Below, in pieces: positions 22,049 to 27,556 of a stretch of 62,496 nt of DNA. A program made the position numbers and the translations under genes. The first letter of the stretch is position 1. Each line of letters starts with the position of its first letter. The notes below the pieces were generated by a model, which saw nothing but the letters and a program-made list of their open reading frames with translations, searched no databases and was not told the origin of the DNA. Source of the DNA: Acidobacteria bacterium Ga0077522 (GTDB lineage: Bacteria > Acidobacteriota > Vicinamibacteria > Vicinamibacterales > Vicinamibacteraceae); assembly GCA_001464065.1 (NCBI GenBank), contig LNDN01000012.1, positions 1 to 62,496 on the forward strand, written 5' to 3'.

Positions 22049-22534
22049 TCACCGCTCCCAGAACGGCGGCGGCTCGACCCCCAGCGCGCGGAGGTAGACG
22101 TAGCCCTGCCCGCGGTGATGGACCTCGTTGTCGACGATGTAGAGGATCTGCCAGTGCCCGGGACCGGTGTACTGGCCGAACGACGTCACCGTCTCCTGAA
22201 ACCGCGCGGCCGGGATCTGCGCCCAGAACTCCGCGATCTTCGTCGTCCCCTCGTCCCAGAGCCGCAGGATCTCGGCCTTCGACGACGCCTTCGGCGGGGC
22301 GTAGCCGCCCCACTCGAGCGTGGCCAACCCGTGCGCCATGGGTCCGGCCATGCCGAGCAGTTCGTTGGCGAGGTCCCCGAACGTCCGCATCCCGCCAATC
22401 GAGAACGAGAACAGCTGGTCGTCGGGGAACAGCTCGATCGCCCGCCGGGTGAGCCGGCGGTGGCCCTGCCAGTGCTCGAGCAGCGCGTCGGTGGAGATGA
22501 ACATCGCGGGCTGGGATGGGTTCGTGCTTGTCAT
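22049..22534 (-). CDS. DinB-family putative metal-dependent enzyme
   Basis: 161 residues forming the four-helix DinB/YfiT fold. A His in ALLEHWQGHRRLT and the helix-4 pair VHHRGQGYVYLRALG supply the typical three-His metal site. DinB proteins include thiol transferases and many uncharacterised members; the specific role is unknown. The start was set at MTSTNPSQPAM rather than a far-upstream ATG that would overlap the divergent GntR promoter. Confidence 0.85.
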   Translation of the reverse strand: MTSTNPSQPAMFISTDALLEHWQGHRRLTRRAIELFPDDQLFSFSIGGMRTFGDLANELLGMAGPMAHGLATLEWGGYAPPKASSKAEILRLWDEGTTKIAEFWAQIPAARFQETVTSFGQYTGPGHWQILYIVDNEVHHRGQGYVYLRALGVEPPPFWER

Positions 22535-22627: not shown

Positions 22628-22654
22628 TATACTGTGCATACTGTCTATGCACAG
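22628..22654 (+). promoter_or_regulatory. GntR operon promoter with dyad operator overlapping the start codon
   Basis: Perfect 9-bp inverted repeat CTGTGCATA (22632-22640) and TATGCACAG (22646-22654) with a 5-bp spacer. The ATG of the GntR gene (22647-22649) lies inside the right arm. A TATACT hexamer (22628-22633) and a CATACT hexamer (22637-22642) are -10 candidates overlapping the left arm. There is no Shine-Dalgarno. The layout implies autorepression by the encoded GntR/YtrA-type regulator. Confidence 0.75.
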
Positions 22655-23042
22655 CCCTGGCGTCTTCATCTCTCAGGCCGATCCGCGGCCGATGTACGTG
22701 CAGATCGTCGAGCAGATCCGCCGTCGCATCGCCGTCGGCGACTGGCCGCCTGGCTTCGAGCTGCCGTCGATTCGCGCCCTGGCCGCCGCCACCCGGGTGA
22801 GTGTGATCACCGTCAAACGGGCGTACTCCGACCTCGAGCACGACGGCGTGATCGTGACGCGTCAGGGCAAGGGGTCGTTCGTGGCCGAGCAGGCGGACCT
22901 CAGCGCGCGCCTGCGCCTGGCCGAACTCGATGCCCACCTGTCCACCGCCACGTCCATCGGCCGCGCGCTGGGCTTGTCGGACGAGGACCTGCACGCGCGG
23001 CTCCGGCAGACGCTCACTGCCAAGGATCGACACGAACCATGA
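22647..23042 (+). CDS. GntR-family (YtrA subfamily) transcriptional repressor
   Basis: 131 residues. The winged-helix GntR domain opens DPRPMYVQIVEQIRRRIAVGDWPPGFELPSIRALAAATRVS and contains the recognition-helix signature VSVITVKRAYSDLEHDGVI, then GKGSFV. The short C-terminal tail with no ligand-binding domain is characteristic of the YtrA subfamily, which regulates ABC transporters responding to cell-envelope antibiotics. First gene of a five-gene operon; its stop overlaps the next start in an ATGA. Its start codon lies in a perfect dyad. Confidence 0.92.
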   Translation: MHSPGVFISQADPRPMYVQIVEQIRRRIAVGDWPPGFELPSIRALAAATRVSVITVKRAYSDLEHDGVIVTRQGKGSFVAEQADLSARLRLAELDAHLSTATSIGRALGLSDEDLHARLRQTLTAKDRHEP

Positions 23043-23935
23043 CCGAGCCCGTCTTCTCGCTGAGCGGCGTCGCCAAGCGCTACCGGTACTTCCAGCTCAC
23101 CGACCTCAGCCTGCGCCTCGACCCCGGGCAGGTGATGGGCCTGGTCGGGCCCAACGGGGCCGGCAAGTCCACCACGCTGCGCATCCTGATGGGCATGGTG
23201 CAGCAGGACCGCGGCGACGTCCGCGTGCTCGGCCAGTCGATGCCGGCCGCCGAGGCCGCCGTCAAGCGCGACGTCGGCTACGTGTCCGACGACATGCGCC
23301 TCTACGGCAGCCAGACGCTCGCCTGGCACATGCGCCTGGTCTCCGGCGTGCACGACACGTGGGACGCCGCCTATGCCGAGCAGCTCGTCGGTCGCTTTCT
23401 CCTGCATCGCGATCAGCCGATCCGCCTGATGTCGCACGGCGAGCGGGTCAAGGCCACGCTCCTGCTCGTCCTCGCCCGTCGTCCGCGCCTGCTCGTGCTC
23501 GATGAGCCGACCACGGGGCTCGACCCCGTGGCGCGTCATGAGGTCCTGACGGAACTGATGGCGGTGGTGCGCGACGAGACCCGCTCCATCCTGTTCTCGT
23601 CGCACAACACGCAGGACGTCGAGCGGATCTGCGACCGCATCGCCTTCCTCGATCGCGGCCGCGTCATCGAGGACAGCGACACCGCCGCCTACCTCGATCG
23701 CTGGCGACGGGTGCACCTCGACGTCCCTCCCGGCGCCACGGTGCCGCGTGCCGACGGCCTGATCGACACGGTGCAGGACGGTCGCCTGGTGGCCGTCACG
23801 ACCAGCGCATACGCCCCGGCGTTCGAGGCATCGTGCGCCCACGCCGGGATCGCCGTGCGCGACGTCCAGCGCATGACGCTCGAGGAGATCTTCGTCGCCA
23901 CGGTCATGCACCACCGTCAGGAGCGTGCGGCATGA
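23039..23935 (+). CDS. ABC transporter ATP-binding protein (GntR operon)
   Basis: 298 residues. Walker A GPNGAGKS, Q-loop region YVSDDMRLY, Walker B LLVLDEPTTGLD, and an SSHN H-loop. The signature motif is divergent: RLMSHGERVK in place of LSGGQ, a variant found in YtrB/CcmA-like ATPases that pair with YtrA regulators. A C-terminal ~90-residue tail (MTLEEIFVATV ending) resembles the regulatory domain of ABC-2 drug/lipid exporters. ATGA overlaps on both sides indicate translational coupling with the repressor and the permease. Confidence 0.9.
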   Translation: MTEPVFSLSGVAKRYRYFQLTDLSLRLDPGQVMGLVGPNGAGKSTTLRILMGMVQQDRGDVRVLGQSMPAAEAAVKRDVGYVSDDMRLYGSQTLAWHMRLVSGVHDTWDAAYAEQLVGRFLLHRDQPIRLMSHGERVKATLLLVLARRPRLLVLDEPTTGLDPVARHEVLTELMAVVRDETRSILFSSHNTQDVERICDRIAFLDRGRVIEDSDTAAYLDRWRRVHLDVPPGATVPRADGLIDTVQDGRLVAVTTSAYAPAFEASCAHAGIAVRDVQRMTLEEIFVATVMHHRQERAA

Positions 23936-24597
23936 GTACGGCCGTTCGGCACCTGATCGTCAAGGACCTGTCGCTGATGCGCTGGTGGATGGTCGGCACC
24001 ATCGGCGGGGGCCTGGTCGCGGCGTGGCTGATGACGCTCAGCGCGCAGCCGATCAGCGCCGGCGGCGTGCTGATGCTCTGCACGCTCATCATCCTCAACA
24101 TCTTCATGGTCATGGGCGGTGTCGTCACCGAGCGCAAGGAACACGTGACGCTGTTCCTGTTCACGTTCCCGGTGTCGCGCCGGCAGTACGTGGCGGCCAA
24201 GGTCGTCGCCAATGCCATCGCCTTCGGTCTGCCCTGGCTCGTGCTGAGCCTCGCCGTGGTGGCCGCCATCCGTCTGTCAGCGATCCCTGACGGATATCTG
24301 CCGCTGTGGACGTCGCTGCTCGGCTTCGTCTTCTTCTACTACTGCGTCCTGCTCGCGGTCGGGCTCAACACCGAGGCCAACGGCTGGCATGCGACGACGA
24401 TCACCATCGGCAACATCTCGGTGAACTTCTTCATCATGCTGCTGTTCGGCGTGCCGTCCGTGCAGCGCTTCGGCAGCGGACCGACCGCCGTGTGGGCCCC
24501 GGACATCCTCATCCTCACGGTGGGCGAGATGGCGCTCGGCGTGATCGTCCTCGTCGTCGGCGCCGTCACCCGCGCCCGCCGCGCCGATTTCATCTGA
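23932..24597 (+). CDS. ABC-2-type transporter permease (GntR operon)
   Basis: 221 residues with six predicted transmembrane helices. A typical ABC-2 coupling segment ERKEHVTLFLFTFPVSRRQYVAAKVV lies between helices 2 and 3. No large extracellular domain. It pairs by position with the preceding ATPase (4-bp ATGA overlap). The short length and the VSRRQY motif match YtrC/ABC-2 permeases of envelope-stress exporters. Substrate unknown. Confidence 0.88.
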   Translation: MSTAVRHLIVKDLSLMRWWMVGTIGGGLVAAWLMTLSAQPISAGGVLMLCTLIILNIFMVMGGVVTERKEHVTLFLFTFPVSRRQYVAAKVVANAIAFGLPWLVLSLAVVAAIRLSAIPDGYLPLWTSLLGFVFFYYCVLLAVGLNTEANGWHATTITIGNISVNFFIMLLFGVPSVQRFGSGPTAVWAPDILILTVGEMALGVIVLVVGAVTRARRADFI

Positions 24598-24607
24598 TCC
24601 GGGGAAC

Positions 24608-26746
24608 ATGCCCATGACCTCGCACGACCGCCTGCACGCACTCGACGCCGTCCGCGCCGGGGCCCTGCTGCTCGGTGTGGTGTTCCACGCCGGGTTCTCG
24701 TTCATTCCCGGCATGCCGCCGGGCCTCTGGGCGATGGTGGACCGCTCGCCGAGCACCCCGCTCGCGGTGCTCCTGTTCGCGTCGCACATGTTCCGGATGA
24801 CGCTGTTCTTCGTCATCGCCGGCGTCTTCGCCCGGATGGCGTTCCATCGTCGCGGCGCCCGCAGCTTCTGGACCAACCGCGCCACACGCATCCTCGTGCC
24901 GCTCACCGTCGGCTGGCTCGTGCTGGCGCCCACGATGGCGGGCGTGTGGATCTGGGGGCTGACGCGGACGTTCGGCGGCACGCTGCCGGCTCCACCGGCC
25001 ACTCTCCCGCCCCCTCCCGCGGCGGCGTTCCAGTTCATGCACCTGTGGTTCCTGTACTACCTGCTGGTGCTGTACGTGCTGGTGCTGGCGGTCCGCGCCC
25101 TCGTGGTGGCCGTCGACACGCGTGGGGCGGTACGTGGACGGGTCGACGCGGTGGTGGCCCGCCTTGTGGGGTCTGGCACGGCCGCCCTGGTCCTGCCCGT
25201 GCCGCTGGCGCTGGTGCTGGCGTGGACGCCGATGTGGTTCATGTGGTTCGGCATTCCCACGCCAGACCAGTCGTTCCTCCCGCGCGCCGCGTCGCTGGTC
25301 GGCTACGGCACGGCGGTGGCATTCGGATGGCTCCTGCATCGGCAGCTCCATCTGCTTGCCGCATGGAGTCGCCAGTGGCCCGTGCATCTCGGTGCCGCGA
25401 TCGTCGCGACGACGGGCTGTCTCGTGATGACCGGCCTGACGCCGCCGCTGGTGCCCGCCGTGCCTGGCGCGCCACTGTCGTTCGGGTTCGCGCTCGCCTA
25501 CGGCATCGGCATCTGGAGCTGGTCGTTCGCGGTGATCGGCCTGGCCGTGCGCTTCCTGAACCAGCCGCACGCCGTGGTGCGCTACACCGCCGATGCGTCG
25601 TACTGGATCTATCTCGCGCACCTGCCCGTGGTGGTCGCGATGCAGGTGCTGGTCGGGCAGCTGCCCTGGCACTGGAGCGTCAAGTTCCCGCTCGTGCTCG
25701 GCGTCAGCCTCGTCGCGCTCTTTGCCAGCTACCGCTACCTCGTGCGCCCCACCGTCATCGGCCAGGTCCTCAACGGACGTCGCTACCCGCGTGGCCTCGT
25801 GCGCGACGGTGTCGTTGATGCCGCCCACGAACCGGATGCGGCTCCACCACCTGCTGGTGCACCCATCCCCCTCGCGTCACTGCGGGACGTCCACAAGCGC
25901 TATGGCACGACGGTCGCGCTCGCCGGACTCGACCTCGACGTGCGTCCCGGCGAGGTGCTGGCGGTGCTCGGGCCCAACGGCGCCGGCAAGTCCACCGCCA
26001 TCGGCCTGCTGCTCGGCCTGCTCGAGCCCGACCAGGGCACGGCCTCGCTGTTCGGGCGTGCGCCGCTCGACGTCCACGCCAGGCGACGAGTGGGCGTGAT
26101 GATGCAGGACGTCGCGCTGACCCCGGAGCTGCGGGTCCGCGAGCTCATCGCCTGTGCGTCGAGCTACTACGCCACCCCGCTCACCGTGGACGAGACGCTC
26201 GCGCTGACACGACTCGACGCCCTGGCGCATCGCCCGTACGGCAAGCTCTCCGGTGGTCAGAAGCGCCTCGTGCAGTTCGCGCTCGCCGTGTGCGGCCGCC
26301 CGCAGCTGCTCTTCCTCGACGAGCCCTCCGTGGGACTGGACGTCGAGGCGCGCGAGGTGCTCTGGCAGACGGTGCGCGCCCTCGTCCACACGGGGTGCGC
26401 CATCGTGTTGACGACGCACTACCTGGAGGAGGCGGAGGCGCTCGCCGACCGCGTGGCGGTGCTGGCCGGCGGGCGACTCCTCGCCTCCGGCAGCGTCGCC
26501 GAGGTGCGGTCGCTCGTCTCGCGCAAGCACGTCACCTGCGCCAGCCGCATCGACGAGGCCGGTGTACGCACGTGGCCGGGCGTCGTCGCCGCGGTGCGCG
26601 ACGGCGAGCGACTCGCCATCACGGTCGTCGATGCCGAGGACTGTGTCAGGCGCCTGCTCGCGGCAGACGACCAGCTCCGCGATCTCGAGATTCGCCAGGC
26701 AGGTCTGGCGGAAGCGTTCTCTGCCCTCACGAAGGAGGCGGCGTAG
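24608..26746 (+). CDS. Fusion: integral-membrane acyltransferase 3 domain + ABC ATPase
   Basis: 712 residues in one uninterrupted frame. Residues 1-390 are an acyltransferase-3/OpgC-like membrane protein: RLHALDAVRAGALLLGVVFHAG at the N-terminus with the candidate catalytic H27, about ten helices, and RYTADASYWIYLAHLPVVV near the end. A Pro/Ala-rich linker (400-422) leads to a full ABC ATPase: Walker A GPNGAGKS at 455-462, signature LSGGQKR, Walker B LLFLDEPSVGLD, H-loop TTHYLEEAE and a DrrA-like C-terminal tail. The two domains are normally separate proteins. The next gene is a matching permease. The role may be coupling acylation to export (inference). Confidence 0.88.
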   Translation: MPMTSHDRLHALDAVRAGALLLGVVFHAGFSFIPGMPPGLWAMVDRSPSTPLAVLLFASHMFRMTLFFVIAGVFARMAFHRRGARSFWTNRATRILVPLTVGWLVLAPTMAGVWIWGLTRTFGGTLPAPPATLPPPPAAAFQFMHLWFLYYLLVLYVLVLAVRALVVAVDTRGAVRGRVDAVVARLVGSGTAALVLPVPLALVLAWTPMWFMWFGIPTPDQSFLPRAASLVGYGTAVAFGWLLHRQLHLLAAWSRQWPVHLGAAIVATTGCLVMTGLTPPLVPAVPGAPLSFGFALAYGIGIWSWSFAVIGLAVRFLNQPHAVVRYTADASYWIYLAHLPVVVAMQVLVGQLPWHWSVKFPLVLGVSLVALFASYRYLVRPTVIGQVLNGRRYPRGLVRDGVVDAAHEPDAAPPPAGAPIPLASLRDVHKRYGTTVALAGLDLDVRPGEVLAVLGPNGAGKSTAIGLLLGLLEPDQGTASLFGRAPLDVHARRRVGVMMQDVALTPELRVRELIACASSYYATPLTVDETLALTRLDALAHRPYGKLSGGQKRLVQFALAVCGRPQLLFLDEPSVGLDVEAREVLWQTVRALVHTGCAIVLTTHYLEEAEALADRVAVLAGGRLLASGSVAEVRSLVSRKHVTCASRIDEAGVRTWPGVVAAVRDGERLAITVVDAEDCVRRLLAADDQLRDLEIRQAGLAEAFSALTKEAA

Positions 26747-27556
26747 ATGCATCCCCTGACCACTCCGGCCGTCACCACTCCCGTCGCCAGCGACGTCGTC
26801 ATGCCGCTGCGACTCGTGCTGCGAGCGTACGCGATGGAGACCCGCGTCGAGGCCCTGCGCGTGCTGCGCACGCCCGGGCTGTCGGTGCCGTTCCTGCTGC
26901 TGCCGGTGCCGATCTACCTCTTCTTCGGCACCATCCTGCCCGCCGGCGAGATCGCGAAGAACCCGGCGCTCGGCAGCTATCTGTTCTGCAGCTGGTGTGT
27001 CTACGCGGCGATGGGGCCGGCGATGTTCGGCGCCGGGTGTACGCTCGCGGCCGAGCGCGAGGCGGGGGTCTTCCGCCTGCGTCGCGCGCTCCCGTCACCG
27101 CCCGGCGCGTGGCTGGTCGCCAAGACCGTGGTGTCGATGGCGTTCACGGCGCTCGCGGTCATCTCCATCGGCGTGACCGCGCGCATCGTCGGGGCGACCC
27201 CGCTGTCGCTGGCGCAGATGCTCATCATCGGCCTGACGATGGTGGCGGGTGCACCGGCATTCTGCGCGCTCGGCCTGTTCGTGGGGGCGCGTGCGTCGGG
27301 CTCATCGGCGCCGGCGATCATCAACGTGATCTTCCTGCCGATGCTCTGGCTCTCGGGCCTCTTCTTCCCGCTGCCCGGCTTCCTGGAGAAGCTCGTCGTG
27401 ATCTGGCCGGCGTTCCACCTCAATCAGGTGGCGATCGGCCTGGCCGGCGTCGAGGGCTTCAGCTACGTCCCCCCGACGATCTCCGCGGCCGTGCTCGTCG
27501 GCATGGCGGTGGTGTTCGGCGGGCTGGCGATCAGGCGCCTCGCGCGGCACGGGTAG
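26747..27556 (+). CDS. ABC-2-type transporter permease (DrrB-like)
   Basis: 269 residues with six helices. It has the ABC-2 family pattern: an amphipathic N-terminus, GAGCTLAAEREAGVFRLRRALPSPPGAWLVAK between helices 2 and 3, and FLPMLWLSGLFFPLPGFLEK near helix 5, a DrrB/NodJ-type signature. The start codon directly follows the stop of the fusion gene, so it is almost certainly the permease partner of that fusion's ATPase. Last gene of the GntR operon. Confidence 0.9.
   Translation: MHPLTTPAVTTPVASDVVMPLRLVLRAYAMETRVEALRVLRTPGLSVPFLLLPVPIYLFFGTILPAGEIAKNPALGSYLFCSWCVYAAMGPAMFGAGCTLAAEREAGVFRLRRALPSPPGAWLVAKTVVSMAFTALAVISIGVTARIVGATPLSLAQMLIIGLTMVAGAPAFCALGLFVGARASGSSAPAIINVIFLPMLWLSGLFFPLPGFLEKLVVIWPAFHLNQVAIGLAGVEGFSYVPPTISAAVLVGMAVVFGGLAIRRLARHG

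What the first reader, a model, noticed from the sequence alone, without database searches (positions are those of the whole stretch)
24608..26746. Membrane acyltransferase fused to an ABC ATPase inside a GntR-controlled double exporter operon
One 712-residue frame joins a complete acyltransferase-3/OpgC-like membrane domain (candidate catalytic H27, about ten helices) to a complete ABC ATPase with all motifs. It sits in a five-gene operon (22647-27556) with a YtrA-type repressor, a stand-alone ATPase and two different ABC-2 permeases, with ATGA overlaps or zero spacing through most of it. A natural hypothesis is a two-exporter machine in which acylation of a glycan or lipid is coupled to ATP-driven export, induced by envelope-active compounds. 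I know of no characterised system with this fusion.
Basis: partly seen in the sequence, partly recalled or inferred. Interest (0 to 1): 0.82.

Follow-up and report, generated by a model that had tools for sequence, protein, structure and literature searches.

The report
Conserved acyltransferase–ABC ATPase fusion in exporter operon
Several Acidobacteriota carry one protein that joins a membrane enzyme able to pass acyl groups across the membrane to the ATP-burning motor of an export pump, inside a five-gene operon with its own repressor, which suggests a machine that exports something and acylates it at the same spot; this protein architecture has apparently not been described.

Summary
The fusion is real, not an assembly error. 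Window 24608-26746 encodes a 10-helix acyltransferase-3 (AT3) domain (D13xxR16, H27) joined by a disordered linker to a complete ABC ATPase. The same fusion occurs in seven genomes of two Acidobacteriota classes, with conserved motifs but unrelated linkers. Where contigs allow, it always lies in GntR-ATP1-PERM1-[AT3-ATP2]-PERM2. The repressor has one palindromic site per genome, at its own start codon.

The operon is a composite. GntR-ATP1-PERM1 occurs alone. GntR-ATP1-PERM1-AT3 with a separate AT3 occurs in Acidobacteriota and Pseudomonadota. ATP2's sister clade sits with PERM2-like permeases under DesK-type two-component systems. Thus AT3 also accompanies the first exporter without ATP2-PERM2, and the fusion tied it to a second one. 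All seven fused ATPases form one clade (100/99), which fits a single fusion.

Most likely it is a YtrA/PmtR-type, self-regulated double exporter, in which AT3 acylates, from cytosolic acyl-CoA, what is exported, or the envelope beside the pump. Assembly, substrate and inducer are inferred. The acceptor is unlikely to be OpgGH-type glucans: MdoG is missing in all 12 genomes searched. New variant of a known kind.

The parts
22633..22653 (.). Palindromic putative operator TGTGCATACTGTCTATGCACA; the GntR start codon (22647) lies in its right arm and a TATACT -10-like hexamer abuts its left arm
   Evidence: Exactly one copy in each of 9 genomes with the intact 5' end, reversed-pattern control 0; upstream comparison
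22647..23042 (+). GntR-family regulator, YtrA-subfamily size (131 aa)
   Evidence: PF00392 59.7 bits; best NCBIfam profile PmtR, 74 of 200 bits
23039..23935 (+). ATP1, stand-alone ABC ATPase (298 aa)
   Evidence: PF00005 90.1 bits; best NCBIfam profile PmtA, below cut-off
23932..24597 (+). PERM1, ABC-2 permease (221 aa)
   Evidence: PF13346 and PF12698 above cut-off; homologues next to ATP1 in related operons
24608..25792 (+). AT3 domain of the fusion (residues 1-395): 10 TM helices, D13xxR16, H27, both ends predicted cytoplasmic
   Evidence: PF01757 82.4 bits; topology; model; invariant residues
25793..25867 (+). Flexible linker; 397-414 disordered in the model; differs in length and sequence between homologues
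25868..26746 (+). ATP2, ABC ATPase domain of the fusion (residues 421-712)
   Evidence: PF00005 95.4 bits; nearest solved fold NosF, Z 31.4, rmsd 3.2, 291 residues aligned; fused clade 100/99
26747..27556 (+). PERM2, ABC-2 permease (269 aa), different Pfam family from PERM1
   Evidence: PF01061 40.3 bits; homologues follow ATP2 in fused and stand-alone contexts

Best explanation
A self-regulated, YtrA/PmtR-type double ABC exporter operon into which a membrane acyltransferase has been built. (1) The small GntR protein represses the operon from a single palindrome overlapping promoter and start codon; an unknown ligand releases it [palindrome conservation shown; binding, repression and ligand inferred]. 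(2) ATP1-PERM1 and ATP2-PERM2 form two exporters [each pair occurs alone elsewhere; assembly inferred]. (3) The AT3 domain has both ends in the cytoplasm, so its fused ATPase is on the right side to drive PERM2; an ATP2 dimer on a PERM2 dimer would hold two AT3 domains beside the pump [topology predicted, complex inferred]. (4) AT3 carries an acyl group from cytosolic acyl-CoA to the outer face of the inner membrane and puts it on the exported molecule, or on lipid or glycan next to the pump [inferred from the TmAT/AT3 mechanism]. (5) Evolution: AT3 became associated with GntR-ATP1-PERM1 more than once or very anciently; a pair related to the DesK-regulated ATP2-PERM2 exporters joined, and AT3 and ATP2 fused, probably once [trees; history inferred].
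For: Fusion in 7 genomes in 2 classes with the same gene order; catalytic and ABC motifs conserved while linkers vary; tight gene spacing retained; one palindrome per genome; fused ATP2 monophyletic 100/99 and sister to the DesK-linked ATPases; AT3 as a separate gene after GntR-ATP1-PERM1 in G572, G269, G1017, G960, G746; two AT3 clades linked to such operons; both ends of AT3 predicted cytoplasmic; AT3 mechanism of presenting acyl-CoA to the outer face (PMC9833829); PmtR regulates only its own exporter operon (PMC5080381).
Against: No substrate, inducer or biochemical evidence. The complex was not modelled; the domain arrangement rests on a monomer model with a disordered linker. The acyl group could be acetyl, succinyl or another. 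Rarity (2 of 162 genomes in the order, 5 of 149 in the other class) says it is dispensable. Most AT3-linked operons were found by searching with AT3, so the linkage frequency is biased.
Confidence: 0.5

Rival explanations
1. Envelope-modification response: the exporters and AT3 share a regulator and trigger but not a substrate. AT3 acylates a surface glycan or lipid while the pumps remove a membrane-active compound; the fusion only fixes stoichiometry or location.
For: AT3 enzymes modify surface glycans for resistance (PMC9558356); B. subtilis ytr is induced by lipid II cycle inhibitors (PMC12772383); linkers are variable and disordered.
Against: Co-induction alone does not need a fusion; the fusion is kept in all seven genomes that combine this AT3 with this ATP2, in both classes.
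Confidence: 0.25
2. Drug modification and efflux: AT3 acylates a small antibiotic-like molecule, as macrolide O-acyltransferases of this superfamily do, and the DrrA-like ATP2-PERM2 expels it.
For: ATP2's best NCBIfam profile is the daunorubicin-resistance DrrA subfamily (187.8 of 312 bits).
Against: No curated cut-off reached; no biosynthetic genes in the operon; the only NCBIfam profile matched by the AT3 half is MdoC, a glycan enzyme. The macrolide comparison is from memory and untested here.
Confidence: 0.1
3. One heteromeric transporter: ATP1 pairs with the fused ATP2 and PERM1 with PERM2, with AT3 as accessory subunit.
For: All five genes are tightly spaced or overlapping.
Against: ATP1-PERM1 occurs without ATP2-PERM2 and ATP2-PERM2-like pairs occur without ATP1-PERM1.
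Confidence: 0.1
4. Chance read-through, lost stop or assembly error joining two genes.
For: AT3 and ATP2 homologues are separate genes in most relatives.
Against: Same fusion in seven assemblies, the six others 53-65% identical to the window protein and without a stop; monophyletic fused ATP2.
Confidence: 0.01

Closest known systems
Staphylococcus aureus PmtR-PmtABCD (PMC5080381)
   Same: Small YtrA-type GntR repressor first, then ATPase-permease-ATPase-permease, overlapping genes, regulator with a single target operon; GntR and ATP1 have PmtR and PmtA as best NCBIfam profiles
   Different: Scores far below the curated cut-offs (74 of 200; 157 of 350); no acyltransferase among the pmt genes; ATP2 is DrrA/NodI-like; substrate unknown
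Bacillus subtilis ytrGABCDEF (PMC12772383)
   Same: YtrA-type repressor in an ABC transporter operon linked to the cell envelope
   Different: No AT3 in the operon; YtrA operators have inverted repeats 13 bp apart (PMC4730234), here 5-7 bp
AT3 fusions: AT3-SGNH (OafA/OafB/OatA) and AT3-alanine racemase (VanT) (PMC7448272, PMC9558356)
   Same: AT3 domain with conserved Arg and His of helix 1, fused at its C-terminus to a second domain
   Different: The SGNH domain needs an 11th helix to reach the periplasm; here the partner is a cytoplasmic ABC ATPase after helix 10
OpgC/MdoC glucan succinyltransferase
   Same: Only NCBIfam profile matched by the AT3 half
   Different: 116 of 338 bits; mdoG absent from all 12 genomes searched
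DesK/LuxR-type two-component ABC exporters in related genomes (L042-L048)
   Same: ATP2 sister clade with PERM2-like permease
   Different: Stand-alone ATPase; histidine kinase and response regulator instead of GntR; an amidohydrolase-CIA30 gene in the cluster

Membership tests
AT3 / TmAT superfamily | Acyl_transf_3 profile above the gathering score | tested here: met
   82.4 bits against 31; also met in four other fusions
AT3 / TmAT superfamily | DxxR motif and conserved His in helix 1 | tested here: met
   D13, R16, H27 invariant in 7 fusions and 2 unfused relatives
AT3 / TmAT superfamily | 10-helix TmAT fold | tested here: inconclusive
   10 hydropathy peaks and a confident model, but the fold search was filled by the ATPase half
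AT3 / TmAT superfamily | Acyl transfer from acyl-CoA to an extracytoplasmic acceptor | not testable with these tools
   Needs biochemistry
ABC-2 type exporter | ATPase with all ABC motifs next to an ABC-2 permease | tested here: met
   conserved in homologues
ABC-2 type exporter | ATP-driven export | not testable with these tools
   Needs a transport assay
YtrA-subfamily GntR repressor | GntR winged helix plus very short C-terminal region | tested here: met
   PF00392 59.7 bits at 17-79 of 131 residues
YtrA-subfamily GntR repressor | Binding to a dyad operator at its own promoter | tested here: inconclusive
   Single palindrome at the start codon in 9 of 10 genomes, control 0; binding itself not testable here
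Pmt system (NCBIfam equivalogs) | PmtR and PmtA curated cut-offs | tested here: not met
   74.1 of 200 and 157.2 of 350 bits
OpgC/MdoC | MdoC equivalog cut-off | tested here: not met
   116.2 of 338 bits
OpgC/MdoC | Glucan synthesis gene mdoG/opgG in the genome | tested here: not met
   PF04349 absent in 12 of 12 genomes; E. coli control positive

The most novel reading that the evidence does not exclude
A previously undescribed class of machine in which an ABC exporter's motor and a transmembrane acyltransferase are one polypeptide, so that ATP-driven flipping and trans-membrane acylation of the same envelope molecule are mechanically coupled.
Probability: 0.3. Interest if true: 0.85.

Novelty: new variant of a known kind. 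Interest (0 to 1): 0.62.

Why it matters
The two published overviews I checked name AT3 alone, AT3-SGNH and AT3-alanine racemase; a cytoplasmic ABC motor is a new partner. A fusion kept across two classes is strong evidence that acylation and export act together, and the unfused four-gene operon in Pseudomonadota shows the link is wider than the fusion. It gives a direct handle on two open questions: what YtrA-type exporters move, and how stand-alone AT3 enzymes meet their acceptors.

Tried and rejected
First AlphaFold2 job with four sequences was poor (pLDDT 54.7); repeated with 55 sequences. PDB sequence search of the AT3 half found nothing useful, and structure searches were filled by the ATPase half, so no solved AT3 relative is claimed. 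The one public-genome scan found only two loci because its peptide patterns were narrow. PADLOC hits were generic ATPase matches, no defence system. Plasmid collection: no record covers 80% of the fusion. ATP1 search in the class of G1017 found only G1017 itself, but only seven candidates per genome were scored, so this is not a frequency. The ATP1 tree did not resolve the history of the module. An 829-aa ATPase frame in G033 (L050) looks like an over-extended start, with an N-terminal part that is partly adenylosuccinate-synthetase-like and partly non-coding-looking; judged by eye, it is not another fusion of this kind. The sigma-70 scan found no promoter over threshold in the window. The paper searches found no description of an AT3-ABC fusion, in an open-access library only.

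Full report
OBSERVATION. The window is the whole of contig C12 of a 5.44 Mb genome. The frame at 24608-26746 reads through without a stop for 712 residues. Its N-terminal part matches Acyl_transf_3 and its C-terminal part ABC_tran, both well over the curated cut-offs. The five genes 22647-27556 are spaced -4, -4, +10 and 0 bases. A DinB-like gene lies upstream on the other strand (22049-22534).

IS THE FUSION REAL? In relatives, G023 (record title: Vicinamibacteraceae MAG) has the fusion end to end at 66% identity between PERM1 and PERM2; the first half of what looks like the same operon lies at the end of another contig. In another class of the same phylum, G379 and G449 were found first, then G617, G539 and G615. 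The order GntR-ATP1-PERM1-fusion-PERM2 is complete in G000, G379, G617 and G539, and consistent in the three that are cut by contig ends. D13, R16, H27 and the other AT3 residues tested are invariant in all seven; the ABC motifs are conserved too (three have LSAGQ as signature and one has T for S in Walker A), while the linkers are 29-47 residues by the measure used and unalike. That is the pattern of two functional domains on a tether. The fusion is rare: 2 of 162 genomes of the order and 5 of 149 of the other class. In 398 Pseudomonadota genomes only separate AT3 genes were found.

HOW IT WAS ASSEMBLED. GntR-ATP1-PERM1 occurs without AT3 in G005; G042 ends at PERM1 on its contig, and no AT3 of this kind was found in that genome. 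GntR-ATP1-PERM1 followed by a separate AT3 gene occurs in G572 and in diverged form in G269, and in the Pseudomonadota genomes G1017, G960 and G746. The nearest stand-alone relatives of ATP2 sit with a PERM2 homologue; in the loci examined further an amidohydrolase-CIA30 protein, a DesK-type kinase and a LuxR-type regulator follow. In the ATP2 tree the seven fused ATPases are one clade (100/99), with the DesK-linked ones as nearest group. In the AT3 tree the fused domains and the unfused G269 form one clade (98/93), while the AT3 of G572, G1017, G746 and G960 belong to another (100/99). So AT3 became linked to such operons at least twice, or very anciently, and the fusion most likely arose once; G269 may be the unfused sister or a later split (its place has weak support). 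G379 groups with the Vicinamibacterales fusions rather than with its own class in the AT3 tree (100/96) and weakly in the ATP2 tree (91/56), which hints at transfer of the operon.

REGULATION. A palindrome TGTGYAT-N-ATRCACA lies at the GntR start codon. Searched in ten genomes, it occurs exactly once in nine, each time at this place, with no match for the reversed control; the tenth, G449, lacks this end of the operon on its contig. In G379 the exact match lies just upstream of the start codon. The palindrome is also present in the three-gene operon of G005, the four-gene operon of G572, and just upstream of GntR in the Pseudomonadota genome G1017. The regulator is therefore most likely dedicated to this operon, as reported for PmtR (PMC5080381). 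Binding and inducer are not shown.

STRUCTURE AND TOPOLOGY. Averaged hydropathy gives ten helices, and positive charges alternate so that both ends lie in the cytoplasm. The AlphaFold2 model is confident for both domains (mean pLDDT 92.3) with a disordered linker. The ATPase is closest to NosF of the NosDFY transporter (Z 31.4, rmsd 3.2, 291 residues aligned). In published AT3-SGNH fusions an eleventh helix carries the partner into the periplasm (PMC9558356); here no such helix is predicted, and the partner is cytoplasmic, as an ABC motor must be.

MECHANISM. Published modelling of AT3 supports acyl-CoA entering from the cytoplasm and the acyl group being presented at the outer face (PMC9833829). 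Together with the exporter genes, this makes export followed by acylation at the outer face of the inner membrane the most economical model. Two separate pumps are favoured because each pair is found without the other. Because AT3 also accompanies ATP1-PERM1 where ATP2-PERM2 is missing, the first pump is probably involved too. The acceptor is unknown. Classical OpgGH glucans are unlikely, because MdoG is absent from all twelve genomes.

NOVELTY. Known AT3 architectures in the two sources read are AT3-only, AT3-SGNH and AT3-alanine racemase. My searches of the open-access library found no AT3-ABC fusion, but most subscription papers are not held. I rate it a new variant of known kinds (AT3 enzyme; YtrA-type ABC exporter operon) with a new domain architecture.

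LIMITS. No substrate, inducer, complex or activity was tested. The frequency of the AT3 link is biased by how the loci were found.

Noticed in passing
L087:5873-8773 (G449): One 967-residue frame joins an ECF sigma factor (residues about 22-190) to a second, distinct AT3 domain (579-944); possibly another AT3 fusion.
   Followed up: partly
L092:6297-8183 (G493): AT3 domain interrupted by an ankyrin-repeat block between its first and later helices, in one 629-residue frame.
   Followed up: partly
L042-L048: Recurring gene group of ABC ATPase, ABC-2 permease, amidohydrolase-CIA30 protein, DesK-type kinase and LuxR-type regulator in Acidobacteriota and a Maricaulis MAG.
   Followed up: partly
L029:1912-4190; similar gene sizes in several of L131-L135: Stand-alone AT3 genes in Pseudomonadota are followed by a roughly 215-residue protein with no Pfam match and a roughly 100-residue HTH_34 regulator (domains checked in L029 only).
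   Followed up: partly
L139:2976-2996: The Pseudomonadota genome G1017 has the same type of palindrome just upstream of GntR in its four-gene operon.
   Followed up: yes
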